Source of the DNA: Acidovorax sp. CCYZU-2555
Lineage (GTDB): Bacteria; Pseudomonadota; Gammaproteobacteria; Burkholderiales; Burkholderiaceae_C
DNA: 64,000 nt
Direction of reading: 5' to 3'
NCBI RefSeq assembly: GCF_018413525.1
Contig: NZ_JAHCDD010000022.1
Coordinates: forward strand, 1-64,000
The stretch's first letter is position 1; every line of letters starts with the position of its first letter. A model generated the notes under the pieces. That model ran no database searches and was not told where the DNA came from. It was given only the letters and a program-made list of their open reading frames with translations. Position numbers and translations under genes: made by a program. Of this stretch, positions 17,514-35,761 are shown piece by piece.

Positions 17514-19868
17514 TCAGAAGTCGTAGCGCATGCTGACGTTCACGCTGCGCGGTGCACCCCAGGTGTACTGCACGCGGCCGAAATCGCGCATGCCTGCGAA
17601 GTAGCTCTTGTCGAACGCATTGCGCACGTTGAGGTTCAGGCTCAGGTGGGTGTTGAAGCGATAGCGCGCCATCAGATCGACGACCCAGAACGAGGGTTGA
17701 ACCAGCGGGCCGGCCGTGGTCTTGCTTTGCCAGCGCGTGGACGCACCCACGGTCAGGCCGCTCAAGGCGCCGGCGAGCTGGTAGGTGCTGCCCAGCTTGA
17801 ACTGGTTCTTCGGCAGATAGGTGTAGTTGTTCAGGTTGCTGCTGTTTTGCACATAGCTGCCCTGGGCCTGCCAGCCGCGCGCGATCTCGCCCGACAGTTC
17901 GAGCTCGTAGCCGCGCTTGGTGACGCCCGAGGCCGAGCGATAGATGGCCGTGCCGTCGGGCATTTCGTTGCCGGTTTCCTCGGCCACGTTGTCGGTCTTC
18001 ATCCAGAAGTAGGACAGGCTCGCGTTGAGGCGCTTGTCGAAGAACTCGCCCTTGGCGCCGATCTCGCGCGTCTGGCCTTCTTCCGGGTCGAGCACGCGGC
18101 CGCTCGCATCGATGGCGCTTTGCGGTTTGAAGACGCTCGCATAGCTGCCGTAGAGCGAGACGTTCGGGTGCACGTCGACCACCAGGCCCGCGTAGGGCGT
18201 GAGCACGCCGCTTTTCTTGATGTCGTAGTTCGACCAGGCGTAGGGCGTGACGTCGTATTGCCGGTAGTTGGTGAGGCGCGCACCCGCAATCAGTTTGACC
18301 GGATCGGCCAGACTAAACTTCCCCGCGGCATAGACCGAGTTGCGGCGCGAGCTGAAGGTACTGTGGTTGTCCATCGGATAGTCGAGCAGATCTTCGGGGC
18401 GCGCGATGCCGCCGCCGCCGGCCGCATAGTCGAGGCCGAGGTTGGTGAACCGATCTGCGCCCGAGTACGCGTCCGAGCGGGTACGCGCGGTGTCGAAGCC
18501 GAACATCAGTTCATGGGTGCGGCCGAACAGCTGCACCGGGCCGTGCAGATCGAGGGCCAGGCCGCGATTGGTGTTGGTGCTGTCGCGCGTATAGCCCAGG
18601 TCCACCGCCTGGGGCATCGCCATGAACAGGATGCCCGTGGTTTCGAGCGGCACCGTCGTCTTCTCGGTACTCGCGCGCAGGCTGGCTTTCCAGCCGTTGC
18701 CGAAGCTATGTTCGAGGCTGGCATTCAACGCATTCGTGTCCTGATCGTAGCCCGACCAGGGTGCGCCCAGGTTGTAGGAGCGCGGCTGCAGTCCCAGGTA
18801 CTGGCCGTTGGCCGCATAGGCCTGGATCATCGCGGTGCTGCTCGCACCGTAGTACTCGCGGTGGCGGTGGGTGAAGCCCAGGTTCAGCAGTGTGTCCGGG
18901 CTCAGGTCCACATCGACCGTGCCATAGAGTGTCTGGTTGCTGCGCTTGGCGTGATCGCGAAAATCCTTTCCGTCGGCTGCCGCGGCCACGATGCGACCGC
19001 GGATGCTGCCGCTGTCATTGAGCGCGCCGCCCAGGTCCACATCGGCGCGGTAGCTGTCCCAGCTGCCTATGCCTGCGCCCACGCTGGCCTTGAACTCCTG
19101 TGTCGGGCGCTTGCGGATCATGTTGACCGTGCCGCCATACTTGCCGTCGCCGCTGACCAGTCCCGACGAGCCCTTGAGCACTTCGATGCGGTCGATTTCG
19201 ACCATGTCGTCCATGGTGTAGAAGGTCTGGGTGTTGGCGTACCAGCCCGATGCCAGCTGGCGCAGGCCATCGACCTGCAGGTTGACGGCGTTGCCGCGCA
19301 CCATGATGTTGTTGCCGTCGCCCTGGCGATCGATCGTCACGCCAGGCGTCTGCTCCATGACATCGGTCAGCGTCTCGAGCTTGAAATCATCCATGCGCTG
19401 GCGCGTCATCACGCTGACCGATTGCGGCGTCTCGCGCAGCGTGAGGTTCAGGCCGGTCGCGCTGCGCGACGGGCCGGTCTGGGTGTAGCTGCCCGTGCCT
19501 TCGGTCGTGCCGTCACGGTGGGCCTGGGCTTTCACCGTCACGGTGTCCAGCTGTACCGCGCGAATCAGATAAGTGCCCGGTATCGATTGCACGAATTCAA
19601 GCCCGCTGCCGCGCAGCAACTGGCGCAGACCGTCCGAGAGTTCGAACTGGCCGCGCACCGCGGGCGCCTGCTTGCCCGCGAGCAGCGCGCCATCGGCGGC
19701 AATCGTCACGCCCGCGCTGCGCGCCAGCGACTTGAGCGCATCGCCCAGCGGCTGGGCCGGCAGATCGATGGCCAGCGGCGCGGCCCAGGCAGCGGCCCAG
19801 GCGGATGCGCACAACAGGGACAGGGTGGCTTTGCGCAGGGGACGGCCCGCGCGGGAAAACTTCGACAT
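17514..19868 (-). CDS. TonB-dependent signalling receptor with STN domain (cassette 1)
   Basis: 784 residues: signal peptide, STN domain (~32-105: IDLPAQPLGDALKSLARSAG ... QLLRGSGLEF), plug (LRETPQSVSVMTRQRMDD ... IEVLKGSSGLVSGDGKYGG) and barrel ending RSVNVSMRYDF. The STN domain contacts a FecR protein in the periplasm, so this is a transducing ferric-siderophore receptor of the FecA/FpvA type. The start at 19868 is supported by a CAGGAG site nine bases upstream. Its fecR and sigma genes follow on the same strand upstream; a 103-bp gap before it should hold its ECF-dependent promoter. Confidence 0.92.
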   Translation of the reverse strand: MSKFSRAGRPLRKATLSLLCASAWAAAWAAPLAIDLPAQPLGDALKSLARSAGVTIAADGALLAGKQAPAVRGQFELSDGLRQLLRGSGLEFVQSIPGTYLIRAVQLDTVTVKAQAHRDGTTEGTGSYTQTGPSRSATGLNLTLRETPQSVSVMTRQRMDDFKLETLTDVMEQTPGVTIDRQGDGNNIMVRGNAVNLQVDGLRQLASGWYANTQTFYTMDDMVEIDRIEVLKGSSGLVSGDGKYGGTVNMIRKRPTQEFKASVGAGIGSWDSYRADVDLGGALNDSGSIRGRIVAAAADGKDFRDHAKRSNQTLYGTVDVDLSPDTLLNLGFTHRHREYYGASSTAMIQAYAANGQYLGLQPRSYNLGAPWSGYDQDTNALNASLEHSFGNGWKASLRASTEKTTVPLETTGILFMAMPQAVDLGYTRDSTNTNRGLALDLHGPVQLFGRTHELMFGFDTARTRSDAYSGADRFTNLGLDYAAGGGGIARPEDLLDYPMDNHSTFSSRRNSVYAAGKFSLADPVKLIAGARLTNYRQYDVTPYAWSNYDIKKSGVLTPYAGLVVDVHPNVSLYGSYASVFKPQSAIDASGRVLDPEEGQTREIGAKGEFFDKRLNASLSYFWMKTDNVAEETGNEMPDGTAIYRSASGVTKRGYELELSGEIARGWQAQGSYVQNSSNLNNYTYLPKNQFKLGSTYQLAGALSGLTVGASTRWQSKTTAGPLVQPSFWVVDLMARYRFNTHLSLNLNVRNAFDKSYFAGMRDFGRVQYTWGAPRSVNVSMRYDF

Positions 19869-19971
19869 GAAAAGTGGCTCCTGAGAGGTCATTGCTCGTC
19901 CCACGGACAAGCCTTGGTGTATGACGCGTATGCCCCCCCAATCCCTGAGTTCGAAAGCGAAATAAATTTCC

Positions 19972-20946
19972 TCAGCGCGCCGAAAGCACGATTTCGCTGC
20001 CGGCGCGCTGCACGCGCACCGCGCCCAGATGCGGCAGCGCGCGCAGGAAATCATCGACCTGGCGCAGCTGCACCGCGGCCGTGATGCGCGGCGCGACCTG
20101 GCCCGCGGCGGGCAGGGCGCGTATCGCCAGCGGGTGGTAGCGCGACAGCGTGGCGGCGATTTCCTCCAGCGTCGCCAGCTCGAACACGACGAGGCCGCGC
20201 TCTATCGCAAACGCGTCTTCGGCGCGCAGGCCCGCGAGGCGCTGCGGCGTGCTGCCGGGCGCGGCCGCGTCGTACCATGCGCCCACCTGGCCGGCGCGCA
20301 GCTCCAGCGGCGCCTGCAGGTTGTCGCGCGACGCGAGCCGCACCACGCCTTCCTGCACGCTCACGCGCACGCTGCCCGGCAGGCGATCGACCGAGAACAC
20401 CGTGCCCACCACCGTGATGCGCGCGCCCGCGCAATCGACGATGAAAGGCCGCGCGGGATCGGGCGCCACATTGAACAGCGCCTGGCCTTGCGCCAGCCGC
20501 ACGGCGCGTTGCGCACTATCGAAGGCGACTTCAATGGAAGTCGATCCGCCCAGTCGCAGAGCGCTACCATCGGGCAAGGCCACAGGATCGAACTGGCCTA
20601 TCGCCGTCGCGCGCGCCAGCGTGAAACGGGCCGCATCGGCCGCGCGCCAATGCGCGCGCAGCAGCCAGGCCATGCAGCCCAAGCCCGCCAGGCCCAGCAG
20701 CCCGCGCGTGACATGGCGGCGCTGGCGTCGGCGTTGTGCCGTGGCCGCCGAGGCCAGTGCCTGGGCGCGGTCGGTGGCGCCGAAGTCCTGCCACAAGGTG
20801 TCGAAGCCCGCGTACTCGCGCGCATGGTCGGGGTGGGCGTTGAGCCAGGCGTCGAACGCCAGGCGTTCGCCTTGCGGCAAAGGGGCGGTGCGCATGCGCA
20901 GAAACCAGCGTGCGGCGTCTTCGCGCACGGTCGCGTTGGCGGCCAT
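19972..20946 (-). CDS. FecR-like anti-sigma / sigma regulator (cassette 1)
   Basis: 324 residues: an N-terminal DUF4880-like cytoplasmic region (AARWFLRMRTAPLPQGERLAFDAWL), one membrane helix (~84-100: GLLGLAGLGCMAWLL), the periplasmic FecR domain (VALPDGSALRLGGSTSIEVAF ... VVGTVFSVDR) and a C-terminal receptor-contacting region. It would relay occupancy of the cassette 1 receptor to the sigma factor encoded two bases upstream. Confidence 0.92.
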   Translation of the reverse strand: MAANATVREDAARWFLRMRTAPLPQGERLAFDAWLNAHPDHAREYAGFDTLWQDFGATDRAQALASAATAQRRRQRRHVTRGLLGLAGLGCMAWLLRAHWRAADAARFTLARATAIGQFDPVALPDGSALRLGGSTSIEVAFDSAQRAVRLAQGQALFNVAPDPARPFIVDCAGARITVVGTVFSVDRLPGSVRVSVQEGVVRLASRDNLQAPLELRAGQVGAWYDAAAPGSTPQRLAGLRAEDAFAIERGLVVFELATLEEIAATLSRYHPLAIRALPAAGQVAPRITAAVQLRQVDDFLRALPHLGAVRVQRAGSEIVLSAR

Positions 20947-20948
20947 GT

Positions 20949-21482
20949 TCAGCCGCCGATCTGCTCGCGCAGCGCACGCAGATCGACCAGCGCCCGGATC
21001 AGGTGGCGCTCCACGGCATTGAGCGTGATGCCCAGCTGGCGCGCGATCTCGGGCTGGGTCAGGCCTTCGATGCGGCACAGCCAGAACACTTCGCGGCAGC
21101 GCGGCGGCAGGCTGTTGATCGTGGTCTGCACGGCGTTGAGCCGCTGCTGCAGGTCGAGCAGGAACTCGGCCGAAGGCGCGGTCAGCCGCATCACGTCGGC
21201 GCCTTCGTTTTGCAACTGCAGCGGATCCTGCGGCAGCGCGCACCAGCGCCTGGCCTCGTTCGCATGGTCGGCCAGCACGGAATGCACCACGCGCCGCAGA
21301 TAGGCATGCGGGCTGTTCAAGCCTTCATGCCGGCCGCTGAGCGCATAGCGCAAAAAGGCATCGTGCAGCACGTCCTGCGCCCGGTGCACGCAGCGCGTGC
21401 TGCGCCAGATGGTGGGCAGCAATGCATGGTAGGCCCAGCCAAGGTCCAGGCCTAGCCATACGGGGGAGGCGTTTGGTGTCAC
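20949..21482 (-). CDS. FecI-like ECF sigma factor (cassette 1)
   Basis: 177 residues from a GTG at 21482. Region 2 is RAQDVLHDAFLRYAL ... YLRRVVHSVLADHANEARR, and region 4 is LPPRCREVFWLCRIEGLTQ followed by the HTH ARQLGITLNAVERHL. It is an iron-starvation-type ECF sigma factor that would direct transcription of its receptor gene. The frame is open to 21587, but that part contains the Fur-box-like palindrome and a GATAAT -10, so the start must lie downstream; GTG 21482 is the first suitable codon. Paired with the fecR gene two bases downstream. Confidence 0.88.
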   Translation of the reverse strand: MTPNASPVWLGLDLGWAYHALLPTIWRSTRCVHRAQDVLHDAFLRYALSGRHEGLNSPHAYLRRVVHSVLADHANEARRWCALPQDPLQLQNEGADVMRLTAPSAEFLLDLQQRLNAVQTTINSLPPRCREVFWLCRIEGLTQPEIARQLGITLNAVERHLIRALVDLRALREQIGG

Positions 21483-21502: not shown

Positions 21503-21521
21503 AATGAGATGGATTCTCAAT
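21503..21521. promoter_or_regulatory. Fur-box-like palindrome before sigma gene of cassette 1
   Basis: AATGAGATGGATTCTCAAT, an imperfect inverted repeat of the ATGAGAA half-site seen at all four sigma genes here. A GATAAT -10 element (minus strand, 21526-21531) lies directly upstream, so binding would cover the start of transcription. Confidence 0.75.
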
Positions 21522-21676
21522 GCCGATTATCCATCGAATCCCTGAAGCCTTGGGCAGAGCGCGCGCGAAGCTGCAGCCATCGCGCAACGGTATGTGCCGC
21601 GGCCTTGATCCCGATCAGACCCTGAGGCAAGGCCGCGCCCGACAATCCTGTCGATGCGTTGCTGGAGATGCCGCCC

Positions 21677-22864
21677 ATGAAACCGCTGATCATTCCTTCC
21701 GAGCCGACACCGCCCGCGCGCGGCTTTGCGCTCTGGGCGCTGGGCTTTCGCCCGTTCTATCTGCTGGCCAGCGTGTTTGCCGCGCTGTCGGTGCCGCTGT
21801 GGGCGCTGCAGTTCAGCGGGCATCTGCCGTTTGCCTATGTCGACGGCCCGTTCTGGCATGCGCATGAAATGCTGTTCGGCTTCGCGCTGGCGGTCATTGT
21901 CGGTTTCCTGTTCACCGCGGGGCGCAACTGGTCGGGCCACGCCACGCCGACAGGCGCCTTGCTGGCCGCATTGGCGCTGCTGTGGCTCGCGGCGCGCGTG
22001 CTGCTGCTGACGCGCTGGCAGATTGCGGCCGCCGTGGCGAATGTCGCTTTTGCGCTGGCCGCGGCGCTGGGCCTGGCCCTGCCGTTCTGGCGGGCGCGCA
22101 ACAAGCGAAACTATTTCTTTGTCGGCCTGTTGCTGCTGTTCGCGGCCTGCTGCGCCTGGGTGCACGCGCAGCGGCTGGGCTGGACTGCGTCGAACGCCTG
22201 GGGCGGGCTGCAACTCGGGCTCAACATGCTGCTGTTCATCATGGTGGTGATCGCGGGCCGCGTGCTGCCCATGTTCACCAACAATGCCGCGCCGGGCGCA
22301 CGGGCCACGCGCCGTGGCTGGCTGGAGAAGCTGAGTCTGGGCCTGGTGCTGACGCTGCTTGTCGCCGACCTGGCGGGCGCGGGCGGACCGCTGTCGATTG
22401 CGCTGGCGCTGCTCGCGGCCGCGGCGCATGGCCTGCGCTGGTGGCTGTGGCAGCCCTGGAAGACGCTGCGCCAGCCGCTGCTGTGGGTGCTGCATCTGGC
22501 CTATCTGTGGATTCCCGTGCATTTGCTGCTGCGCGCGCTCGCGGCGCTTGAATGGGTGCCGCTGTCGGCGAGCATCCACGCGCTGACCGTGGGCGCGGCC
22601 GGCGGCCTGATCATCGGCATGATCACGCGCACTGCGCTGGGCCACACGGGCCGGCCGCTGCGCGCGGGCCGCGGCGAAACCGCCTGCTATCTGCTGATCG
22701 CGGCCGCGGCGCTGGTGCGCGTGCTGCTGCCGCTGTCGCTGCCCGCGCTCACGCTGCAGGCGATGGTGTGGTCATCGCTGCTGTGGGCGCTGGGGTTTGG
22801 GCTCTATGCCGTGCTGTATTGGCCCGTGCTGACCCGGCCGCGCATTGACGGGCAGCCGGGGTGA
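21677..22864 (+). CDS. nnrS: NnrS-family integral membrane protein
   Basis: 395 residues with about 12 hydrophobic helices. NnrS signatures are present: GFRPFYLLASVFAALSVPLW at the start, WHAHEMLFGFALAVIVGFLFT, and VIAGRVLPMFTNNA in the middle. NnrS proteins contain haem and are linked to protection against nitric-oxide stress in denitrifiers. No denitrification gene is visible; here the gene sits between two iron-signalling cassettes. The ATG at 21677 has a GGAG site ten bases upstream. It ends 16 bases from the convergent receptor gene. Confidence 0.92.
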   Translation: MKPLIIPSEPTPPARGFALWALGFRPFYLLASVFAALSVPLWALQFSGHLPFAYVDGPFWHAHEMLFGFALAVIVGFLFTAGRNWSGHATPTGALLAALALLWLAARVLLLTRWQIAAAVANVAFALAAALGLALPFWRARNKRNYFFVGLLLLFAACCAWVHAQRLGWTASNAWGGLQLGLNMLLFIMVVIAGRVLPMFTNNAAPGARATRRGWLEKLSLGLVLTLLVADLAGAGGPLSIALALLAAAAHGLRWWLWQPWKTLRQPLLWVLHLAYLWIPVHLLLRALAALEWVPLSASIHALTVGAAGGLIIGMITRTALGHTGRPLRAGRGETACYLLIAAAALVRVLLPLSLPALTLQAMVWSSLLWALGFGLYAVLYWPVLTRPRIDGQPG

Positions 22865-22879: not shown

Positions 22880-25393
22880 TCAGAACTTGCTGCGCAGCGT
22901 CACCATCACGCTGCGCGGCGCGCCGTAACGGTAGCCGAACTCGTCGTTGTAGTAACGCTTGTCGAACAGGTTCTTGACGTTGAGCGCGAGCGTCGTGCCC
23001 TTGGCGATACGGTAGCGCGCAAAGCCTTCCCAAAGTGCTCGCCCGGGCTGGCGGCGTTCGATGCCGTTGTAGTCGTTGCCGGCTGTTCTGCTTTGAATTT
23101 CGGTTCCCGCTCCGAACGTCCAGCCCTCGACCAGCGAGTCGTAGGTCGCGAACAGGCGCACGGTATGGTGGGGAATCACGCTGAACTGCTGGCCTTCGTT
23201 GGCGGTGGGTTGGCCGTAGGCGTCGCGGTCACGCAAATAAATGGCGTCGGTGTAGGTGTAAGCCGCTGAAGTCTGCAGACCACGGACCAGCTCGCCGGCG
23301 ACCTCCAGCTCCAGGCCCTGGCTGCGCACCTTTCCGCCGTTGACGTAGCACAGACCGCTGGCGGGCTGCCCTGGGCAGCCTCCGGCAGGGTAGTTTGTGT
23401 CGATGGCCGCGCGCCCTGTCTGCTCTATGCGAAAGATCGCGGCAGCGACCGTCGCCCGACCGCCCAGTGCTTCGCCTTTGATTCCCAGTTCGTAATTGCT
23501 GCCGATCGCCGGGTCCAGTGCCTTGCCACTCGCCGTGGCATACGTGCTCTGGGGCTGGAAGATGTCGGCGTAACTTGCATACGCGGACCAGGCCGGACTG
23601 AGGGCGTAGACAAGGCCCGCAAAGGGAGTGAACTCCTGGCTCTGCTTGCTGACGCTGGTAACTGCTCCCCTGGCGTTGTAGTTGGTGGCCGTGTTCCAGC
23701 TGAGCCGTCCACCCAAATTCAACTTGATGGCATCCGTCACCTGGATCACGGAGTTGCCGTAGAGGCTCTGGCTCTGTATCTTGACGGCTCCCGACGGTGT
23801 TCTGGAAAAGACTGGTTCGGAAAATCCTTCAAAGAAGGGATTCAACGCATTGAAGGTCTGACCGGTATAGCCGTAGGTAGCAAGGCTGTCGTTGCGGGTT
23901 TCGTCCATGAACGAAGCGCCGAATCGCAGTTCCTGGCGATATCCGAGAAATTTCAGCTGCCCTTGAACGCTCGCATCCAGGGCCTGCCTGTCCAGGTCGT
24001 AATAGGTGTTGAGCGCAGTCGGGGCACCGGACCCTATCTGCTGGTAGGTGGCCGGATCGACCAGTCGGGATGCGGTTGCAATGCCGATCTCATCGATGAA
24101 AGCCCGCTGTTTGTTGAAGGCGAATTTCGCGGCCCAGTCGTTGTCGAAGCGGTGGCGCAGTTCAGCAAACAGCTCCTTGGTCTCGCTTTGATATTCCGAC
24201 CAGGAAGGACCGTACGAATAGCTGCGCGGCAGGCCCAGGTCGCGGCCGTTGCTGGAAACGGGAATCCCACGGAACAGGTAGAGGCCATCCTGCTCATACG
24301 CCTGGTAGCGCAGGCCGGCGGTCAGCGTTGTCGCAGGGGCCAGGTCGGCTTCGATGAGGGCGTAGACCAACGGCACCTTCGAAGAAGCCCGGTCGTAGAA
24401 AAAGTCTTTGTCCTCATAGGCCAGCACGGCACGGCCGCGAACACTAGCGCTTTCGTTCAGCGGCCCCGTGGCATCGAGTTCGCCGCGCCGGTAACCCCAG
24501 GAGCCAGCCCGGGCCACGAACTCCACCTGTTTTTCGTCCAGTGGTCGCTTGCGCACCATATTGACTGTCAGGCCGGGCGTTCCCGCACCCAGTTGTAGCC
24601 CTGCCGCGCCACGCAGGACTTCCACGCGGTCGAGGGTGGCGGGATCTGGCGCCAGCCCTAGGATCTGGTCGAAGCTGCCCACGATCTGCATCCCGTCCAT
24701 CAGCATCTTGGTGGAGTTGAAGCCGCGGGCAACGTAGCTGCTTTGTCCGCTGTTCAAGAAAACACGGCTGATCCCCGGCGTGGCGATCACCACGTCGTCG
24801 AAGTTGCTGAGGTTTTGGTCTTCAAGTCGCTGTCGGGTGACCACGGAGATCGACTGTGGAATATCTTTCAATGGCTGTTCGATACCGGTCATCGAGGCGG
24901 CTTTCGCCGCATAGCTGGCAGTGCCCTCGCTCACTGCACTGCGGCTGCTTTGCGCCGTGACCGTCACCGCCGCCATCGCCGCCTCGCGCCCACCGGCCTC
25001 GCGCGACGTCAAGGCTGCCGCACTCCTGCGCACCACATACCCCCCGCCCGCGCCCGGAACGGTCTCAAGCCCATGTCCGGCAAGAACCGCTTTCAGTGCG
25101 GCCGACAGGCTATAGCTGCCAGCCAGCCCGGCGCTGGTTTTGCCCGCCGTGAGCGCGCCGTCGAACGACAGCCAGATGCCGGCGCTGGTCGCGAGACGGT
25201 TGAGCACCTGATCCAGCGTGCCGGCTGCAATGTCGTAGCGCACGCTGGCTTCGGCGCGCGTGGGTGCGGTGCCATCTTGTGCCCAGGCGGGTGCGAAGGC
25301 GATGCTGAGGCAGGCCAGCAGCGCGGCGTGGTGCAGCGGTTTCATGCGCAGTGAACGGCCTGCAGCCGAGCGCTTGTCATTTCCCATGGTCAT
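22880..25393 (-). CDS. TonB-dependent signalling receptor with STN domain (cassette 2)
   Basis: 837 residues: signal peptide ending APAWAQ, STN domain (~50-125: YDIAAGTLDQVLNRLATSAG ... GLETVPG), plug (PLKDIPQSISVVTRQRLEDQ ... VEVLRGAAGLQLGAGTPG) and barrel ending RSVMVTLRSKF. Barrel similarity to FpvA-type hydroxamate/pyoverdine receptors is suggested by the plug sequence, but the ligand is unknown. The start has a GAGAGGG site. Its fecR and sigma genes lie upstream on the same strand. Confidence 0.92.
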   Translation of the reverse strand: MTMGNDKRSAAGRSLRMKPLHHAALLACLSIAFAPAWAQDGTAPTRAEASVRYDIAAGTLDQVLNRLATSAGIWLSFDGALTAGKTSAGLAGSYSLSAALKAVLAGHGLETVPGAGGGYVVRRSAAALTSREAGGREAAMAAVTVTAQSSRSAVSEGTASYAAKAASMTGIEQPLKDIPQSISVVTRQRLEDQNLSNFDDVVIATPGISRVFLNSGQSSYVARGFNSTKMLMDGMQIVGSFDQILGLAPDPATLDRVEVLRGAAGLQLGAGTPGLTVNMVRKRPLDEKQVEFVARAGSWGYRRGELDATGPLNESASVRGRAVLAYEDKDFFYDRASSKVPLVYALIEADLAPATTLTAGLRYQAYEQDGLYLFRGIPVSSNGRDLGLPRSYSYGPSWSEYQSETKELFAELRHRFDNDWAAKFAFNKQRAFIDEIGIATASRLVDPATYQQIGSGAPTALNTYYDLDRQALDASVQGQLKFLGYRQELRFGASFMDETRNDSLATYGYTGQTFNALNPFFEGFSEPVFSRTPSGAVKIQSQSLYGNSVIQVTDAIKLNLGGRLSWNTATNYNARGAVTSVSKQSQEFTPFAGLVYALSPAWSAYASYADIFQPQSTYATASGKALDPAIGSNYELGIKGEALGGRATVAAAIFRIEQTGRAAIDTNYPAGGCPGQPASGLCYVNGGKVRSQGLELEVAGELVRGLQTSAAYTYTDAIYLRDRDAYGQPTANEGQQFSVIPHHTVRLFATYDSLVEGWTFGAGTEIQSRTAGNDYNGIERRQPGRALWEGFARYRIAKGTTLALNVKNLFDKRYYNDEFGYRYGAPRSVMVTLRSKF

Positions 25394-28080: not shown

Positions 28081-28103
28081 GCCGCACAATAAACGATGTC
28101 CGA

Positions 28104-28133: not shown

Positions 28134-28158
28134 ATCAGAACACAGTGAGTTTTTCCTC

Positions 28159-29205
28159 ATGATTCCTGCGCCTCCTTCTCCAGCAGACATGTCCGGCTTG
28201 CGCCAGGACGTGCTCGACTGGTATGTCCGTCGCCATGGCGATGGCTGGGGCGCGGGCGACGAAACGGCGTTTCAGGCCTGGCTGGCCGCGGACGCGCGCC
28301 ACGCCCAGGCCTATGCGCAGTGGGCCGCGCATTCGCAGGCGATAGCCGACCTGCCCGCCGATGCGCTGGCGCAGCTGCGCCGCAATCTGCAACGCGACAA
28401 GGCGGCGGCCGCGCCGGCGCCGCGCCGGCGTTTTCTGCGGCCCGCGTTGGGCATCGCAGCAGGGCTGGCCATCGCCTGCGGCTCGGGGCTGCTCGCGTGG
28501 AATCACCACCAGGCGCAGCCCGTTTTCGCCCAGGCGTTCAGCGCCCCGCGCGGCCAGCAGACCGAAGTCTCCCTGCCCGATGGCAGTCGCCTGCGCCTCG
28601 ATTCGACCACGCGGCTTGCAGTCACGTATTACCGCCAGCGCCGCGAAGTGCAGTTGCTCGATGGGCAGGCGGTGTTCAGCGTGCAGGGCGATGCGGCCCG
28701 ACCGTTCCATGTGCTCGCGGGCCCCGTGGGCGTGACCGTGGTCGGCACGCGCTTCGCGGTGCGGCATACGCCCGGCCTGCCAGGCAACGAAGGCGTGCGC
28801 GTGTCGGTGGAAGAAGGCAAGGTCCGGGTGGTGCGCCGTGATGGCACGCCAGGCGAGGCGCTGCGCGACCTTCCCGGTGCGGTCTACCTGCGGGCGGGGG
28901 AACAGGTCGCAGCGAATGCACAAGGCCGGTTGACGCCGGTGGCTGCCGTGCCCGGCGAAGGCATTGCACTGTGGCGCGACAGCCGCATCAGTTTCGTCGA
29001 TACACCGCTGGCGCAGGCGCTGGCCGAACTGGAGCGCTATGGCAGCACGGGCCTCACGGTGCGCGATCCCGCCGTGGCCGCGCTGCGCCTGAGTGGCACC
29101 TTCGACCCGACCGATGCGCAGACTTTCCGGTTGGCACTGCCCAGCGCGCTGCCCGTGCGGCTCAAGCAGGGCAATGGCACGACCGAAGTGGTGTCGGCGC
29201 GCTGA
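28159..29205 (+). CDS. FecR-like anti-sigma / sigma regulator (cassette 3)
   Basis: 348 residues from the ATG at 28159: DUF4880-like start (RQDVLDWYVRRHGDGWGAGD), a membrane helix (~97-113: ALGIAAGLAIACGSGLLAW), the FecR domain (VSLPDGSRLRLDSTTRLAVTY ... VVGTRFAVRHT) and a C-terminal STN-like part. The frame is open back to 28096, but the predicted ECF promoter lies inside that extension, which rules it out. Having its own promoter, this fecR should be induced with the receptor. Confidence 0.9.
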   Translation: MIPAPPSPADMSGLRQDVLDWYVRRHGDGWGAGDETAFQAWLAADARHAQAYAQWAAHSQAIADLPADALAQLRRNLQRDKAAAAPAPRRRFLRPALGIAAGLAIACGSGLLAWNHHQAQPVFAQAFSAPRGQQTEVSLPDGSRLRLDSTTRLAVTYYRQRREVQLLDGQAVFSVQGDAARPFHVLAGPVGVTVVGTRFAVRHTPGLPGNEGVRVSVEEGKVRVVRRDGTPGEALRDLPGAVYLRAGEQVAANAQGRLTPVAAVPGEGIALWRDSRISFVDTPLAQALAELERYGSTGLTVRDPAVAALRLSGTFDPTDAQTFRLALPSALPVRLKQGNGTTEVVSAR

Positions 29206-29315: not shown

Positions 29316-31703
29316 ATGAGCCGCCAATTCCTTTCCGCCCCGCTTGCCCTGGCCATCGCGCTGGCGTTCGCGGGCACTTCCGTGCACGCCCAAGACGGCG
29401 CCGCGCCTATTGCCTTCTCGATCAAGGCCCAGCCGCTGGCCGAGGCGCTCAACGACTGGGCGCGGCTTACGCGCATTCAACTGATCGCCCAGCAGGACCT
29501 GGTCGCGGGCAAGTCCGCGCCCGGCGTATCGGGCGCGTTGACGCCGGACCAGGCGCTGGCGCAGTTGCTCGCAGGCAGCGGGCTGATGGCCACGCGCACG
29601 GGCAAGGTGATCGTGATCAAACCACAGCCTGCCGCGGGCAATGCCGCGAGCCTGGCCGAAGTCAAGGTCACGGCGGCCGCGGAACGCAGCGCGACCAGTG
29701 ACGGCACGGGCTCGTACGCCGCGCGCGGCGCGACGCTGTTCAAGGGCGTGCAGTCGCTGCGCGAGATTCCCCAGTCGATCAGCGTGCTCACGCGCCAGCA
29801 GATGGACGACCAGAACATCACCTCCGTCGACGCCGCGCTGGAGCAGATGGCCGGGGTGAGCATCACCGGTCTCGCCGGCGAACCCGTGTTCTGGAGCCGC
29901 GGTTACCTCATGAGCGCGCAGATCGACGGCATGCAGGGCACGGCCAACGAAGGCCGCTACGCGAACTCGCTGCCCGCGCTCGCGATGTACGACCGCATCG
30001 AAGTGCTGCGCGGCGTGGGCGGGCTGCTGCGCGGCAATGGCGAGCCAGGCGGCGTGATCAACTTCGTCAAGAAGCGCCCGGGCCATGAACCGGCCACTTC
30101 GGTGCGCCTGCAGGCTGGTTCGTGGAACAGCTACTACACCGAACTGGACGTTTCGCGCCCGCTCAATGCCGAAGGCACGCTGCGCGGCCGCGCCGTGCTG
30201 GCCTATCAGAACGAAGACAAGTTCTACGATGTGGCCACCGACGAGGCCAAGCTGGCCTATGGCGTGCTGGAGTACGACCTCACGCCCGCCACCACGCTGG
30301 GCCTGTCGGCTTCATACAGCCGGCGCAACAACACGCCGTTCTGGGGGCTGCCGTACAACAGCGATGGCAGCCTGCCGGCGCGCTCGGCCTTCGTGGGCCA
30401 TGACCAGGACATGCACACCGAACAGGTCGATGTGGGCCTGTCGCTGGAGCACCGTTTCGACAACGACTGGCGCTTCAAGGCGGGCTACAAGCAGGTGCAT
30501 CTGGACCGGGCCTACGTCATTGCCTACGGCACCACGCCCATTGCCGCCAACGGCCTGGGCGGCTACCAGTCCGGCAACGACCGCTACGATTCGGTCGATC
30601 GATCGCTGGACGTCAGTCTGTCGGGCCCGGTGCAGCTGGGCGGGCGCACGCACAAGTTGACCGTTGGCTATGACCGCCAGTACCAGAACTACACCATGGG
30701 CGCGCGCTGGGGTGCGGGCACGGGCTGGGACCTGCTGAACAACCATGACTTCGGAGCCCTCATTCCGGCCGAGGGAAACTTGACGCAGTACCAGACCAGG
30801 CGCTCGGGGGTGTATGCCAATGCCCATATCCGCCCGACCGACGACTGGACCGTGGTGCTCGGCGGCCGCTGGTCCAACTACGACACCAAGAACCGTGGCA
30901 TCACGCTGCCCGCCGATTGGCGCGTGAGCAATGCAAAGGCCGACCACGAGTTCACGCCGTTTGGCGGCGTGATCTGGGACATGAACCCGCAGGTCTCGTT
31001 GTACGGCAGCTATGCCGAGATCTTCATGCCGCAAAGCGATGTCGATTACACCGGCCAGGTGCTCAAGCCGCGCACCGGCTGGCAGACCGAACTCGGCGCC
31101 AAGGGCGAGTTCTTTGGCGGACGCATGAACGCATCTATTGCGCTGTTTCGCATCCGCGACGAGAACCGCTCCATCGTCGATGTCCTGCGCAGCAACTGCG
31201 GGGCCTCGGGCACCGGCGCCTGTCTCACGGCCGCGGGTCTGTGGCAAAGCCAGGGCTGGGAAGCCGAAGTCTCGGGCAGCCCAGCGCGTGGCTGGGATGT
31301 GTCCGCGAGCTATACACAAAGCAAGACCGAGGTGCTGCGCGCAGCCAATCCCGCCGCTGAAGGGGTGATGGCCAATGTCAAGACGCCCGAACACCTGCTC
31401 AAGCTCTGGACCCAGTACCGCCCGGGCGCCGACCTGTGGGACGGCGCGCTGCAGGGCTGGACCGTGGGCGCCGGCCTATACGGCACCAGCCGCTATGGCT
31501 TCAGCACCACCGCGCCATTCCAGGGCGGCTATGCCACGGTCTCGGCCAAGGCCGGCTACCGTATCAGCCCACAATGGGATGTGGCGCTGCTGGTCGGCAA
31601 CCTGTTCGACCGAAAATACCTGGAGCGCGTCGGCCCTGAGAATTACGCCAACATCTACGGTAAGCCGCGCAACTTCACGCTGACGCTGAACGGCCGCTTC
31701 TGA
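29316..31703 (+). CDS. TonB-dependent signalling receptor with STN domain (cassette 3)
   Basis: 795 residues: signal peptide ending SVHAQ, STN domain (~32-108: FSIKAQPLAEALNDWARLTR ... LLAGSGLMATRTGK), plug (SLREIPQSISVLTRQQMDDQ ... IEVLRGVGGLLRGNGEPGG) and barrel ending RNFTLTLNGRF. The plug resembles that of ferric-pyoverdine/ferrioxamine-type transducing receptors; the actual ligand is unknown. An AGAGGA site precedes the ATG. Unlike the other three cassettes this one lies on the plus strand. Confidence 0.92.
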   Translation: MSRQFLSAPLALAIALAFAGTSVHAQDGAAPIAFSIKAQPLAEALNDWARLTRIQLIAQQDLVAGKSAPGVSGALTPDQALAQLLAGSGLMATRTGKVIVIKPQPAAGNAASLAEVKVTAAAERSATSDGTGSYAARGATLFKGVQSLREIPQSISVLTRQQMDDQNITSVDAALEQMAGVSITGLAGEPVFWSRGYLMSAQIDGMQGTANEGRYANSLPALAMYDRIEVLRGVGGLLRGNGEPGGVINFVKKRPGHEPATSVRLQAGSWNSYYTELDVSRPLNAEGTLRGRAVLAYQNEDKFYDVATDEAKLAYGVLEYDLTPATTLGLSASYSRRNNTPFWGLPYNSDGSLPARSAFVGHDQDMHTEQVDVGLSLEHRFDNDWRFKAGYKQVHLDRAYVIAYGTTPIAANGLGGYQSGNDRYDSVDRSLDVSLSGPVQLGGRTHKLTVGYDRQYQNYTMGARWGAGTGWDLLNNHDFGALIPAEGNLTQYQTRRSGVYANAHIRPTDDWTVVLGGRWSNYDTKNRGITLPADWRVSNAKADHEFTPFGGVIWDMNPQVSLYGSYAEIFMPQSDVDYTGQVLKPRTGWQTELGAKGEFFGGRMNASIALFRIRDENRSIVDVLRSNCGASGTGACLTAAGLWQSQGWEAEVSGSPARGWDVSASYTQSKTEVLRAANPAAEGVMANVKTPEHLLKLWTQYRPGADLWDGALQGWTVGAGLYGTSRYGFSTTAPFQGGYATVSAKAGYRISPQWDVALLVGNLFDRKYLERVGPENYANIYGKPRNFTLTLNGRF

Positions 31704-31733: not shown

Positions 31734-34187
31734 TCACAGCTTGGGCGTGTACTTCACCGTGAGCATCACGTTGCGTGGCTCGCCGTAGCTCGCGCCCGTG
31801 TAGCCGACATAGCCCGGCAGCACATAGCGCTTGTCGAACACATTGTTGACGTTCACGGCCACGTTGAGTTCGCGCGTGGCCTGGTACGACAGGCGCAGAT
31901 TTCCCACGGTGAAGCCCGCGAGCTTGAACGAGCGGTCATAGCCCAGCGTATGGCTTTGCGTGTTGAAGCCGCCGGCCACCGTCAGCTGGTTCCAGTCGCC
32001 GGGCAGGCGATACGAGGCCCAGGCGCGCAGCATGTGCTTGGGCGTGACGGTGCTGAACACCTTGCCTTGCTCTTCAGGGTCGCTGAGGAACTCGGTGGTG
32101 TTGTAGGTATAGCCCGCCATCAGCTGCAGATTGCGCGCCACTTCACCGCTGACTTCGGCTTCGAAGCCCTGGCTGCGCACCTTGCCCGAGTTGCGCGAGC
32201 AGTACCAGCCGTCGCAGGCAAAGCCGGCTTCGAGGTCATTGACGGCGCGCTTGTTGTGGTCGTAGCGGAATACGGCCAGCGAAGTGTTGACGCGGCCTTC
32301 CATCAGCTCGCCCTTGACGCCCAGTTCGTAGTTCTTCCCGATGATGGGCTCGAGCACATTGTCGGCTGCGGTGCGTTCCGACTGCGGCACGAACACGCCC
32401 GTGTAGCTGCCATACGCCGACCATTGCGGTGTGAGCGCATACACCAGGCCCGCATAAGGCGTGATTTCGCGCGAGGCCGTGGTCAGCGAGCGCGTGCCCG
32501 CCTGCTTGTCGTCATAGATCGAGTCGTACCAGCTCGCGCGCGCGCCGACGATGGCCGTCAGCGGTTCGGTGATGCGGCTGCGCAGGCTGGCGTAGATGCC
32601 TTTTTGCTGCACGTCGTAGGCCGCGCGATACTGCCGGCCGCCGCTGGCCAGCATGCTCGCCACCGTGGGCTCGGGGCGGTTGTGGTCGATGGCGAAAAGA
32701 TTGCCGCCCGTGGTGAACGTGCGCGCGAACATGTCGTCGGACGTGTACTTCGAGTAGTTGGCGCCCACGGTGGTTTCGTGGCGCAGGCCCAGGGCCTCGA
32801 AGCGGCCGGTCACATAGGCGTCTAGCCCGACCTTGCTGGAGTCGAAGTCGGTGATCCAGTTGGCATAGGTCATGCCGCTGCCGTCGGCGGCCACGTCGCC
32901 GTGCATGCGCTGGTGCTTGGAGGTGTTCTTTTCGCTCAGATGAATGGCCGCGACCTTGAGCTTCCAGTCGGCGTTGAAACGGTGGTCCAGATCGGCGTAG
33001 AGCATGGTCTGCTCGATGTTGCCGCGGTTCCACGCGGCGCCGGTGTAGGTGGAGCGCGGCAGGCCCACGTCGCTGCCATCGGCGCGCAGCGGCACGCCGT
33101 AGATCATGGGGCGCGACTTGCTGTCCGAGTGGCTCAGGCCCACGCCCACCGTGGTGTCGGGGCTGATGTCGTAATCGAGCGCCGCATACAGCGAGCGCGT
33201 GCGGTCGTTGACGTGATCGATGAACGAGTGGCCGCGTGCTTCGTCGACGACCAGGCGCCCGCGCAGTGTGCCTTCGTCGTTCAGAGGACCGCCGGCGTCG
33301 AGCTGCAGGCCGTAACGGTCCCAGGAGCCGGCGCGCGCCGTGACCGAAACGGTCTTCTCCGTCTGGCCGCGCTTGCGCACCAGGTTGACCGCGCCGCCCG
33401 GGCTGCCCGTGCCCTGCAGCAGGCCAGAGGCGCCGCGCAGCACTTCGAGGCGGTCATAGAACACCATGCCTTCCGTGCCCCAGTTGCCCAGCGCGTAGTT
33501 GTTGCGCGGAATGGCCACGCCGTCGTACTGCCAGTCATTGATCTCGAAGCCGCGCGCGAACAGCACCATGCCCTGGCCCACGCCTTGCGCGCCCACCATG
33601 CCGGTCACATTGTTGATCGCCACGCGCAGATCGGTGATGGCCTGCTCGTCGAGCTGCTTGCGCGTCACCACGCTGATCGACTGGGGAATGTCCTTGAGCG
33701 CCTGGCTGCCCTTGTTGATGGTCACGGCGCGCACCGCCAGCGAGTCCGAACCTTCGGTGGTGGCGCTGCGCTCGGCGCGTGCCGAAACCGTCACCGGGGC
33801 CATCGTGACGGCCGTGCCTGCGGGCACGGCCGCACCCGCGCCCGCGGCCTTGCGCAAGACAAACAGGCCGTCGCCGCGCTGTTGCGCTTCGAGGCCGCTG
33901 CCCTGCAGCACGCGGCGCAGCGCTTCCTCGTTGCCGTAGCTGCCGCGCAGACCCGGGCTGCGCAGGCCGTCGACCAGCGAAGGCTCGAACGACAGGCCCA
34001 TGCCCGCGGCCGTGGACAGGCGCAGCAGCGCCTCATCGAGCGGCCCGGGTTCTATCGCATAGGCGCGTTGCACCGGCGCGGCCGAAGAGCTGGTCTGGGC
34101 AAACGCGCCGGGCAGGGCGCTGGTGGCCAGCAGCACGGCAATGGCCAGCGCGGAGGGCTGGAAACGAAGCGAGGGCTTGGAAGACAT
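31734..34187 (-). CDS. TonB-dependent signalling receptor with STN domain (cassette 4)
   Basis: 817 residues: signal peptide ending PGAFAQ, STN domain (~42-115: YAIEPGPLDEALLRLSTAAG ... VLQGSGLEAQQRG), plug (ALKDIPQSISVVTRKQLDEQ ... LEVLRGASGLLQGTGSPGG) and barrel ending RNVMLTVKYTPKL. The loop FACDGWYCSRNSGK carries a possible disulfide. Upstream on the same strand come its fecR and sigma genes; the 53-bp gap between them should contain its ECF promoter (CGTTCGTC is visible, minus strand). Confidence 0.92.
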   Translation of the reverse strand: MSSKPSLRFQPSALAIAVLLATSALPGAFAQTSSSAAPVQRAYAIEPGPLDEALLRLSTAAGMGLSFEPSLVDGLRSPGLRGSYGNEEALRRVLQGSGLEAQQRGDGLFVLRKAAGAGAAVPAGTAVTMAPVTVSARAERSATTEGSDSLAVRAVTINKGSQALKDIPQSISVVTRKQLDEQAITDLRVAINNVTGMVGAQGVGQGMVLFARGFEINDWQYDGVAIPRNNYALGNWGTEGMVFYDRLEVLRGASGLLQGTGSPGGAVNLVRKRGQTEKTVSVTARAGSWDRYGLQLDAGGPLNDEGTLRGRLVVDEARGHSFIDHVNDRTRSLYAALDYDISPDTTVGVGLSHSDSKSRPMIYGVPLRADGSDVGLPRSTYTGAAWNRGNIEQTMLYADLDHRFNADWKLKVAAIHLSEKNTSKHQRMHGDVAADGSGMTYANWITDFDSSKVGLDAYVTGRFEALGLRHETTVGANYSKYTSDDMFARTFTTGGNLFAIDHNRPEPTVASMLASGGRQYRAAYDVQQKGIYASLRSRITEPLTAIVGARASWYDSIYDDKQAGTRSLTTASREITPYAGLVYALTPQWSAYGSYTGVFVPQSERTAADNVLEPIIGKNYELGVKGELMEGRVNTSLAVFRYDHNKRAVNDLEAGFACDGWYCSRNSGKVRSQGFEAEVSGEVARNLQLMAGYTYNTTEFLSDPEEQGKVFSTVTPKHMLRAWASYRLPGDWNQLTVAGGFNTQSHTLGYDRSFKLAGFTVGNLRLSYQATRELNVAVNVNNVFDKRYVLPGYVGYTGASYGEPRNVMLTVKYTPKL

Positions 34188-34240: not shown

Positions 34241-35221
34241 TCACGGGGTGGTGCGAATCGGCTCCACGGTCACCCAGTACGCGCTGCGCTCGCGCACTTG
34301 TACCGGCAGCGACTCGGCCAGCAGCTGCAGGCTGCGCGCGCGCGCCAGCGCGGGGAAGGTGCCCGAAATGCGCAGATTGGCGACATCGGGGTGGCAGCGC
34401 AGAAAGCCCGGGTGGTAGCGGTCCAGCTCGGCAACGAGATCGGCCAGGCGCATGCGGCGTGCGACGACCATGCCCTGGGTCCAGGCTTCATCGGTCAGGC
34501 CCGCATGGGCCTGGGCCTGGCCCATGCCGCCGGCGCCGAAGTCCAGACGCTGGCCTGCATTGACGCGTTCCTGCCGGCCCAGTGCGTCGACCTCGACCGC
34601 GCCTTCGAACACCACCACACGGCTGTCGTCATCGCGGCCCGCGCGGCGCACCGAAAAGCGCGTGCCTATGGGGCGCACGCTGCCGTCGTGCGTCAGCACG
34701 CGCAGCGGCCGGGGCACGGGCGACGGGTCGGGCGCGCTGGTCACGAGAATCTCGCCGCCCAGCAGATGAATCGTGCGCGACTGGGCGTTGAAGTCCACGG
34801 CAATCTCCGTGGATGTATTGAGCAGCAGCCGCGTGCCGTCGGCCAGCGTCAGCGGCAGCTGCTCGCCGGTCGCGCTGCGCCAGCGCTCGCCGTCGACGCG
34901 CATCTGTTGCCAGCCGAGCCAGCCCGCGGTGGGCAGCAGCGGCAGCCACATCAGGCGCAGCAGATGGCGCCGCCGCGCTGCGGGCTTTTCGAGCGTGGCG
35001 CGCAGCGGCCCGCCGGGCAGGTCGCGCAAGTCGCCCATCAAGGCTTCGGCGCGTTGCCAGGCCCGGCCATGCGCGGGGCTGGACGCGCGCCAGCATTCGA
35101 TGGCTTCCCATTCCTTGGGGCCGGCATCGCCGCCGTGCAGATGGGTCAGCCATTCGGCGGCCTCGCGCAGGATGATCGGGTCTATGGGCGTGTCGGCGCC
35201 TGCCGAGTGCGCGCTGCTCAT
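34241..35221 (-). CDS. FecR-like anti-sigma / sigma regulator (cassette 4)
   Basis: 326 residues: DUF4880-like start (REAAEWLTHLHGGDAGPKEW), a short membrane helix (~88-104: LMWLPLLPTAGWLGW), the FecR domain (LTLADGTRLLLNTSTEIAVDF ... PIGTRFSVRRAG) and a C-terminal receptor-contact part. Its ATG overlaps the sigma stop (ATGA). Confidence 0.92.
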   Translation of the reverse strand: MSSAHSAGADTPIDPIILREAAEWLTHLHGGDAGPKEWEAIECWRASSPAHGRAWQRAEALMGDLRDLPGGPLRATLEKPAARRRHLLRLMWLPLLPTAGWLGWQQMRVDGERWRSATGEQLPLTLADGTRLLLNTSTEIAVDFNAQSRTIHLLGGEILVTSAPDPSPVPRPLRVLTHDGSVRPIGTRFSVRRAGRDDDSRVVVFEGAVEVDALGRQERVNAGQRLDFGAGGMGQAQAHAGLTDEAWTQGMVVARRMRLADLVAELDRYHPGFLRCHPDVANLRISGTFPALARARSLQLLAESLPVQVRERSAYWVTVEPIRTTP

Positions 35222-35730
35222 GCCGCGCTCAGGCAGGCGAGAAAGGCCTGGCTCATATGGCGCTTGACTGTAGGCAGCGACACGCCCATCTGCTCGGCAA
35301 TGTCGGCGTAGACCAGTCCGTCGAGTTGCGAGCTCAGGAAGATGCGGCGCGTGAGCGCAGGCAGGGCGGCCAGGCAGGCGTCTATGCGCAGCAGGGTTTC
35401 GACGATCAGCAACTGTGCTTCGGGCGACGGCGCCAGTGGTTCGGGCTGGGCGGCCAGCGCCTCCAGATAGGCGCGTTCGAGTTCCTGGCGACGCCAGTGG
35501 TCGGCCACCAGATTGCGCGCAATGGTCGTGAGATAGGCGCGCGGTTCGCGCCAGGCGGCCGTATCCGCGGCCTGGCGGCTGCTGAGTACGCGCAGGAAAG
35601 TGTCCTGCGCCAGATCTGCAGCGCGCTCGCCGCAGCCCAGACGGCGGCGCAGCCAGGCACGCAACCAGCCGTGGTGGTCGCTGTACAGGGTTTGGACATT
35701 TAGTCGCAGGGCCGCGCCGGCGTCAGACAT
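35218..35730 (-). CDS. FecI-like ECF sigma factor (cassette 4)
   Basis: 170 residues. Region 2 is ERAADLAQDTFLRVLSSR ... TIARNLVADHWRRQELE, and region 4 is LPALTRRIFLSSQLDGLVYAD with HTH EQMGVSLPTVKRHM. It is the closest relative, by eye, of the cassette 2 sigma factor (both share TLYxxHHGWLxxWLRRRLG at the start). The ATG at 35730 is preferred over the open frame to 35817, because the Fur-like site lies in that extension. Confidence 0.92.
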   Translation of the reverse strand: MSDAGAALRLNVQTLYSDHHGWLRAWLRRRLGCGERAADLAQDTFLRVLSSRQAADTAAWREPRAYLTTIARNLVADHWRRQELERAYLEALAAQPEPLAPSPEAQLLIVETLLRIDACLAALPALTRRIFLSSQLDGLVYADIAEQMGVSLPTVKRHMSQAFLACLSAA

Positions 35731-35742
35731 AGAGATTGCACA

Positions 35743-35761
35743 AATGAGAAAGATTCTCATT
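35743..35761. promoter_or_regulatory. Fur-box-like palindrome before sigma gene of cassette 4
   Basis: AATGAGAA-AGA-TTCTCATT, a perfect 8+8 inverted repeat, the best of the four. It is 12 bases upstream of the sigma ATG and overlaps a TAGAAT -10-like element (minus strand, 35759-35764). The remaining gap to 35959 shows only a small CGTTGG/CCAACG hairpin at 35802-35819. Confidence 0.85.

What the first reader, a model, noticed from the sequence alone, without database searches (positions are those of the whole stretch)
17514..35761. Four complete, separate FecI-FecR-receptor signalling cassettes in 18 kb, each with a Fur-like palindrome
Four ECF sigma genes, four fecR genes and four STN-bearing receptors alternate in order and strand (minus, minus, plus, minus). 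Every sigma gene is preceded by a variant of ATGAGAA-N3-TTCTCAT. Such clustering implies recruitment or duplication of xenosiderophore systems, and raises the question of cross-talk between near-identical sigma/FecR pairs (cassettes 2 and 4 are the most alike).
Basis: partly seen in the sequence, partly recalled or inferred. Interest (0 to 1): 0.72.

Follow-up and report, generated by a model that had tools for sequence, protein, structure and literature searches.

The report
Swappable siderophore receptors on iron-sensing circuits
This bacterium carries four neighbouring iron-scavenging circuits of a known kind, and comparison with relatives indicates that evolution sometimes replaces the part of the receptor that recognises the iron carrier while keeping the signalling part, joining the two at one spot.

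Summary
Four intact operons (ECF sigma, FecR, STN-bearing TonB receptor) lie at 17514-35761, strands -,-,+,-, each with a Fur-box-like palindrome 13-45 bases before the inferred sigma start. As cassettes they are ordinary cell-surface-signalling operons: the genome has 37 FecR matches, another four-cassette cluster, and similar palindromes before most FecR loci checked (26 of 34). The pairs are not near-identical: 2 and 4, the closest, share 54.5% (sigma) and 39.8% (FecR).

The notable result is how the cassettes evolve. In the closest relative found, cassette 2 keeps sigma, FecR, promoter region and STN domain (95.6% DNA identity), but from the TonB-box codons to the stop its receptor is a rec4-type plug-barrel. 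Rec1- and rec4-type plug-barrels occur on several FecR lineages; FecR data reject one clade for each (AU test). Across 27 complete cassettes of this genome, sigma, FecR and STN similarities correlate with each other, none with plug-barrel similarity (r -0.07 to 0.10), while plug and barrel correlate (0.79); the switch sits at the TonB box. Of nine comparable orthologous cassettes shared with that relative, one is swapped. In one Pseudomonas genome decoupling is weaker. Function is inferred; nothing was tested at the bench.

The parts
20949..21482 (-). sigma 1 (ECF sigma factor, GTG start inferred)
   Evidence: Sigma70_r4_2 4.2e-17 (scanned without its first residue); frame checked
19972..20946 (-). 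fecR 1 (DUF4880 + FecR)
   Evidence: FecR 6.3e-20
17514..19868 (-). receptor 1 (STN + Plug + barrel); start inferred, the longest ATG frame begins at 20054
   Evidence: TIGR01783 280.8 bits, cut-off 223.5
19524..19541 (-). TonB-box-like codons of receptor 1 (VTVKAQ), the split point used
   Evidence: DNA matches to rec1 barrels in relatives often end near 19550
21504..21520 (.). Fur-like palindrome of cassette 1 (2 mismatches)
26446..26958 (-). sigma 2
   Evidence: Sigma70_r2 and r4_2
25502..26449 (-). fecR 2; resembles the solved chain 6ovk_R
   Evidence: FecR 8.6e-25; E 4.6e-40
22880..25393 (-). receptor 2; its plug-barrel is unlike that on the same signalling module in the closest relative
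24950..24967 (-). TonB-box codons (VTVTAQ) of receptor 2 = exchange joint
   Evidence: DNA alignment with the relative, identity profile, frame
26994..27010 (.). Fur-like palindrome of cassette 2 (no mismatch)
27431..27447 (.). Fur-like palindrome of cassette 3 (1 mismatch)
27493..28080 (+). sigma 3 (GTG start inferred)
   Evidence: Sigma70_r2, r4_2
28096..29205 (+). fecR 3 (a later start near 28189 is possible)
   Evidence: FecR 3.2e-18; model match 28189-29193
29316..31703 (+). receptor 3 (STN + Plug + barrel)
   Evidence: TIGR01783 351.5 bits
29661..29678 (+). TonB-box-like codons of receptor 3 (VKVTAA), the split point used
35218..35730 (-). sigma 4 (start inferred)
   Evidence: NF009180 203.8 bits, cut-off 184 (scanned without its first residue); frame checked
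34241..35221 (-). fecR 4
   Evidence: FecR domain over cut-off; NF007296 217.5 bits, below its 385 cut-off
31734..34187 (-). receptor 4; its plug-barrel type recurs on other signalling modules in relatives
   Evidence: TIGR01783 325.7 bits; STN
33777..33794 (-). TonB-box-like codons of receptor 4 (VTVSAR), the split point used
35744..35760 (.). Fur-like palindrome of cassette 4 (no mismatch)
21659..22864 (+). NnrS-family gene between cassettes 1 and 2; absent from this place in the closest relative
   Evidence: PF05940 3.4e-109

Best explanation
These are four cell-surface-signalling operons of the sigma-FecR-TonB-dependent-transducer kind, probably Fur-controlled, each expected to switch on its own siderophore receptor when that receptor binds its iron carrier. 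They evolve as two-part machines. The signalling part (sigma, FecR, the receptor promoter region, signal peptide and STN domain) is inherited together; the ligand part (TonB box to stop codon, plug plus barrel) is now and then exchanged at the TonB-box joint. One exchange gives an existing circuit a new ligand without touching its regulation. SHOWN by sequence: gene content, palindromes, the joint in the closest relative, conflict between FecR and barrel trees, loss of correlation at the TonB box. INFERRED: Fur binding, signalling, siderophore ligands, that recombination made the joints, that the chimeras signal.
For: Closest relative found (L046/L063): in 60-bp steps its cassette-2 DNA is 87-97% identical to the window's in the ten steps up to the TonB-box codons, then 48-68% in the next ten, while identity to window rec4 goes from 50-62% to 73-95% (alignment). 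After its stop, 28 bases separate that block from the cassette-1 block. Own genome, 27 complete cassettes of 37 FecR matches: sigma-FecR r 0.68 (0 of 2000 permutations), FecR-STN 0.35 (0 of 2000), sigma-STN 0.26 (2 of 2000); sigma, FecR, STN with plug-barrel -0.07, 0.06, 0.10 (1355, 526, 239 of 2000); plug with barrel 0.79; 40-column slices jump at the box from r 0.16 to 0.74 with the C-terminal 300 columns. Ten rec4-type and seven rec1-type plug-barrels each form one branch with support 100 in the barrel tree; FecR data reject either as one clade (p-AU 6e-64 and 5e-155). Six relatives carry modules like sigma3-FecR3-STN3 (sigma 80%, FecR 66-67%, STN 62-64%) on a plug-barrel 56% like rec1 and 29-30% like rec3. 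Published hybrid: the PupB signalling domain on the PupA barrel imported PupA's ligand and signalled (review PMC9249621, passages seen).
Against: Orthologous cassettes mostly keep their barrel: 8 of 9 comparable pairs with the closest relative, so exchange is occasional per species pair. In one Pseudomonas genome (35 cassettes) decoupling is partial: FecR-barrel r 0.24 (7 of 1000), STN-barrel 0.39 (0 of 1000). Change points of signal-close/barrel-far pairs scatter: 36 of 127 within 20 columns of the box, against 311 of 402 for barrel-close pairs. The reverse published hybrid (PupAB) imported but did not signal. The fecR-receptor gap follows the signalling half only weakly within the own genome (r 0.20 with FecR, 0.01 with STN, 0.01 with plug-barrel). 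The 119-cassette set was gathered partly by barrel similarity and holds one locus twice (L050 = L113); the own-genome and Pseudomonas samples were gathered by FecR alone. The clearest joint rests on one draft assembly.
Confidence: 0.85

Rival explanations
1. Ordinary cluster of four FecIR-receptor operons gained whole by horizontal transfer; receptors travel with their signalling genes and the tree conflict is noise of fast, saturated sequences.
For: Whole-cassette gain or loss does occur: cassette 3 and the NnrS gene absent from this place in one relative, cassettes 2 and 3 in another. 8 of 9 comparable orthologous pairs keep their barrel.
Against: A swap between species that are about 95% identical on one side of the joint cannot be saturation. 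Plug-barrel r 0.79 and sigma-FecR r 0.68 in the same data show that the distances carry signal. AU tests reject one clade.
Confidence: 0.08
2. The joint marks differing rates, not exchange: FecR and STN diverge fast and together, the barrel slowly.
For: 402 of 529 discordant pairs have a similar barrel and dissimilar signalling parts.
Against: The opposite also occurs: 127 of 529 discordant pairs have similar signalling and dissimilar barrels, and cassette 2 against its ortholog is 96/96/87% (sigma/FecR/STN) but 37% in the plug-barrel.
Confidence: 0.03
3. A refinement rather than a full rival: joints at the TonB box reflect selection, not a recombination hotspot. Crossovers fall anywhere but only joints between folded domains survive.
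For: The box lies in the flexible linker between signalling domain and plug (PMC11637429, passages seen). DNA shared by all three sequences at the joint is short, GTGACGGT.
Against: No test made. It is compatible with the main explanation and concerns only why the joint lies there.
Confidence: 0.6

Closest known systems
FecI-FecR-FecA / PupI-PupR-PupB / FoxI-FoxR-FoxA cell-surface signalling (TonB-dependent transducers)
   Same: Same three components and domains; FecR 2 resembles solved chain 6ovk_R (that this is PupR is recalled), receptor 2 resembles solved ferripyoverdine, pyochelin, alcaligin and ferrioxamine receptors.
   Different: Sigma 1 and 4, FecR 4 and the four receptors were scanned and stay below the equivalog cut-offs of FecI, FecR, FauA and FhuE, so ligands are unknown. 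Here sigma, FecR and receptor stand together; the review reports separate fecIR and fecA transcripts in E. coli (passage).
Laboratory PupB-PupA hybrid receptors (Koster et al. 1994, seen only through passages of PMC9249621)
   Same: Signalling domain of one receptor joined to the plug-barrel of another; one direction imported and signalled.
   Different: Made by hand in one pair, and the other direction did not signal; here natural and recurrent by sequence, with signalling untested.
Diverse ferripyoverdine receptors FpvA (eLife 2024, PMC11444679, passages seen)
   Same: Same receptor architecture with a diversifying ligand part; the authors infer recombination and transfer of pyoverdine synthetase clusters.
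   Different: The passages seen do not treat the STN/plug joint as an exchange point.

Membership tests
Cell-surface signalling operon (ECF sigma + FecR + TonB-dependent transducer) | ECF sigma factor gene | tested here: met
   sigma 1-3, sigma 4
Cell-surface signalling operon (ECF sigma + FecR + TonB-dependent transducer) | FecR with DUF4880 and FecR domains | tested here: met
   both domains in FecR 1-3; FecR 4 has the FecR domain and scores 217.5 bits with the FecR model; DUF4880 was not scanned in FecR 4
Cell-surface signalling operon (ECF sigma + FecR + TonB-dependent transducer) | Receptor with N-terminal STN domain | tested here: met
   4 of 4
Cell-surface signalling operon (ECF sigma + FecR + TonB-dependent transducer) | Fur control of the sigma gene | tested here: inconclusive
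   palindrome 4 of 4, 5 Fur-family matches in the genome; binding not testable
Cell-surface signalling operon (ECF sigma + FecR + TonB-dependent transducer) | Sigma-dependent promoter before the receptor | tested here: inconclusive
   in 119 cassettes the fecR-receptor gap resembles that of cassettes with like FecR (r 0.29), not with like plug-barrels (r 0.01); own genome 0.20 and 0.01; no promoter identified
Cell-surface signalling operon (ECF sigma + FecR + TonB-dependent transducer) | Ligand-induced signalling | not testable with these tools
   needs reporter assays
Siderophore receptor subfamily TIGR01783 | Score above the curated cut-off 223.5 | tested here: met
   receptors 1-4: 280.8, 329.2, 351.5, 325.7 bits
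FecI and FecR proper, FauA and FhuE receptors (equivalog models) | Score above the equivalog cut-off | tested here: not met
   FecI 169.7 (sigma 4) and 42.3 (sigma 1) of 260; FecR 217.5 of 385 (FecR 4); FauA 359-423 of 900 and FhuE 270-353 of 666 (four receptors); sigma 2-3 and FecR 1-3 were not scanned with these

The most novel reading that the evidence does not exclude
The TonB box is a general exchange joint: sigma-FecR-STN modules act as sockets into which natural recombination plugs new siderophore-recognising plug-barrels, so that in bacteria with many such cassettes ligand and regulator evolve as independent parts and neither can be predicted from the other.
Probability: 0.6. Interest if true: 0.75.

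Novelty: new variant of a known kind. Interest (0 to 1): 0.62.

Why it matters
It is natural to treat such a cassette as one unit when annotating receptors or predicting siderophore networks. If signalling and ligand halves are exchanged at the TonB box, the ligand must be predicted from the plug-barrel alone and cross-talk from FecR and STN alone. It also gives ready-made natural chimeras for asking how a receptor tells FecR that it has bound its ligand, and a design rule for rewiring such circuits.

Tried and rejected
Recent tandem duplication of the four cassettes: rejected, sigma identities 27-55%. Cross-talk from near-identity: not supported by the same numbers. A donor of the window's rec2 plug-barrel: not found; of 299 genomes drawn from the family only the window's own and one other (46% identity) pass E 1e-150, so which lineage is the swapped one stays open. 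A sigma promoter motif before the receptors: looked at by eye only, not established. Generality: the Pseudomonas genome gives a weaker, mixed picture; the Pigmentiphaga kullae genome was counted (9 FecR) but its cassettes were not fetched as a set. Non-FecR palindrome places: 13 of 15 looked at, six proteins scanned; the frames beside the other places were not scanned, and some do not look like genes. Literature: ten searches of an open-access library; no listed title or shown start of an abstract reports natural exchange at the STN/plug joint. Of the 305 papers only 20 were listed, and most subscription papers are not held, so this is not proof of absence. Four papers were looked into by term search only (PMC9249621, PMC11637429, PMC11444679 gave passages; PMC11734721 gave no match for recombination, signaling domain, STN, sigma factor or horizontal). 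The first script on Pseudomonas failed because the loci were too short; longer stretches were fetched and the script rerun.

Dropped rows: 10 of 37 own FecR matches are not among the 27 complete cassettes (sigma or receptor missing, cut by a contig end, or too short, and three whose FecR my models did not match). The trees used 53 of 119 cassettes, picked by me.
Full report
WHAT IS THERE. Four complete operons, sigma-fecR-receptor, lie at 17514-35761 on strands -,-,+,-; all twelve frames are open. Pfam and NCBIfam identify the parts and the own-genome search finds an STN in all four receptors. All four receptors pass the siderophore-receptor subfamily TIGR01783, but none reaches an equivalog cut-off among the families listed, so ligands are unknown. 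The window's genome belongs to a genus that seems to include Comamonas composti: the contig length 374590 of genus member G008 equals that of record NZ_AUCQ01000002.1. Member G038 likewise equals record NZ_CACSJA010000023.1, filed as 'Pantoea sp. 18069' (86485 bases). These identities are inferred from lengths.

THE PALINDROMES. The pattern occurs four times in the window at up to three mismatches, each time 13-45 bases upstream of an inferred sigma start, against 0.63 expected. In the genome 32 places have up to two mismatches, reversed control 2; 17 of 32 stand 400-1500 bp before a FecR domain. With three mismatches allowed, 26 of 34 FecR loci with enough upstream sequence have one, against 1 of 36 control stretches. 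Of the 15 other places I looked at the frames beside 13 and scanned six chosen proteins: BFD-like ferredoxin, siderophore-interacting protein, imelysin, and three TonB receptors without STN. One more (C107) precedes an STN receptor, and one at the end of contig C96 precedes what by eye is a sigma frame. The rest were not scanned. This is what a Fur box should do; binding was not tested. Five Fur-family matches exist.

THE CASSETTES ARE NOT SPECIAL BY THEMSELVES. The genome has 37 FecR matches and 36 STN matches, the largest FecR number of 53 genus genomes, some of them incomplete (range 0-37, next 27 and 23). Contig C101 holds four more complete cassettes, FecR domains within 17.5 kb, and other genus members hold arrays too.

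WHAT IS UNUSUAL. Aligning the window with the closest relative found (L046, part of G038) gives five blocks: cassette 4 with its flank (90.7%), the cassette-2 signalling part (95.6%), a block matching the window's rec4 plug-barrel (80.9%), cassette 1 (86.9%) and its flank (89.2%). Cassette 3 and the NnrS gene are missing there. The DNA of the relative's cassette-2 receptor follows window rec2 to the codons for VTVTAQ and window rec4 from there on; its receptor was recovered as one long frame. Another member, G003, has cassettes 4 and 1 about 100 bases apart with neither 2 nor 3 between.

IS IT GENERAL? I collected 119 complete cassettes (27 of the own genome, others from genus members, and named relatives) and split each receptor at the TonB-box column. 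Identities correlate within the signalling half (sigma-FecR 0.80, FecR-STN 0.60, sigma-STN 0.52) and not with the plug-barrel (-0.01, 0.04, 0.08). That set was partly chosen by barrel similarity, which can create such a result, and holds one locus twice (L050, L113). The own-genome subset, chosen by FecR alone, agrees: 0.68, 0.35, 0.26 against -0.07, 0.06, 0.10. In it, slices of 40 core columns change at the box: correlation with FecR drops from 0.28 to 0.02 and with the C-terminal 300 columns rises from 0.16 to 0.74. Ten own-genome pairs have sigma of 65% or more, or plug-barrel of 45% or more: one is alike in both halves (L006/L010, sigma 58, barrel 54), one moderately so (L007/L009, 46 and 45), and eight in one half only, such as L014/L021 (sigma 28, barrel 64) and L007/L017 (sigma 71, barrel 22).

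TREES. For 53 of the 119 cassettes, picked to cover the discordant groups and a spread of others, rec4-type (10) and rec1-type (7) plug-barrels are each one branch with support 100 in the barrel tree (LG+G4, quick). In the FecR tree, as I read its topology, the rec4-type lie on four lineages and the rec1-type on three; the tool's own count among the grouped rows is 3 changes for each, of which starred branches force 2. The AU test rejects one clade on FecR data (p 6e-64, 5e-155). The groups were named from barrel similarity seen beforehand, and the tool warned of long branches in both trees.

JOINT POSITION. Of 529 discordant pairs, 402 are barrel-close and 127 signal-close. The best single change point lies within 20 columns of the box in 311 of 402 and in 36 of 127. 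The pairs are not independent, since many come from a few related loci. The eleven pairs of receptor 4 with L065-L075 all put it at the box itself; the pair of cassette 2 with the relative puts it 6 columns after.

HOW OFTEN? Reciprocal-best FecR pairs between this genome and the closest relative number 12, of which 11 have FecR of 80% or more; receptors are comparable in 9 of these 11; 8 keep the barrel (81-95%) and 1, cassette 2, does not (38%). The twelfth pair (FecR 56%) also differs in barrel (33%). With G003 there are ten pairs, nine with receptors; eight of these have FecR of 67% or more and barrels of 60-90%; the 60% one (L025/L206) may be an older change, not followed; the ninth has FecR 52% and barrel 38%. 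So exchange is occasional per species pair, while at greater distance the correlation is gone.

OUTSIDE THE GENUS. In the genome behind L057 (record Pseudomonas sp. Irchel 3E13; all 36 FecR places fetched; 38 FecR frames, 35 complete cassettes) plug and barrel correlate 0.81, sigma-FecR 0.64, FecR-STN 0.54, sigma-barrel 0.13 (111 of 1000), but FecR-barrel is 0.24 (7 of 1000) and STN-barrel 0.39 (0 of 1000), so coupling is partly kept. Single cases resemble exchange: L157/L158 have plug 82%, barrel 68%, sigma 43%, while each has another cassette with 70-71% sigma and 45% barrel.

HOW IT WOULD WORK. Established for the family: the receptor's signalling domain contacts the periplasmic part of FecR, and the other end of FecR binds the sigma (PMC9249621 and PMC11637429, passages). 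The TonB box lies in the flexible linker between signalling domain and plug. A joint there leaves the regulatory contacts (sigma-promoter, sigma-FecR, FecR-STN) on one side and the ligand-binding part on the other. The gap between fecR and receptor goes with the signalling half in the clear cases: local DNA score 332 between window cassette 2 and the relative's chimera, 22 between that chimera and window cassette 4, median of all pairs 18; over all 119 the correlation is 0.29 with FecR and 0.01 with plug-barrel, in the own genome 0.20 and 0.01. The published PupB-PupA hybrid worked in one direction and not in the other. That the natural chimeras signal is inferred.

NOVELTY. The operons are members of a known kind. 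I saw no paper on natural exchange at this joint in ten searches of an open-access library (limits in Tried and rejected), which does not exclude one elsewhere.

Noticed in passing
G000 (whole genome of the window): 37 FecR matches, the most of 53 genus genomes searched (range 0-37), with another four-cassette cluster on contig C101.
   Followed up: partly
window 14938-17169: A fifth siderophore-type TonB receptor (TIGR01783 383.7 bits) with no STN match in Pfam stands next to the cluster.
   Followed up: no
window 17411-17482: Nine perfect tandem copies of TGCCGAAG just after receptor 1; a neighbouring stretch of about 120 bases (17300-17421) recurs at 94% twice elsewhere in this genome and at 92% in a relative.
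   Followed up: no
window 21659-22864: An NnrS-family gene sits between cassettes 1 and 2 on the other strand; absent from this place in the closest relative.
   Followed up: partly
L020:7514-8881: In one cassette (C64) two frames stand between fecR and receptor; by eye they resemble DoxX and a class III extradiol dioxygenase (recalled, not scanned). The cassette has an ortholog in G038.
   Followed up: no
L007:5630-7200: A sigma-FecR pair (minus strand) with a Fur-like site but no receptor found downstream within 3.5 kb.
   Followed up: no
L044:2568-5001: An STN receptor on contig C107, which has no FecR match, preceded by a Fur-like palindrome; its DNA partly matches the rec4 plug-barrel at 66%.
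   Followed up: no
L206 against L025: G003 ortholog pair with sigma 84, FecR 80, STN 78 but barrel 60%: perhaps a further, older exchange.
   Followed up: no
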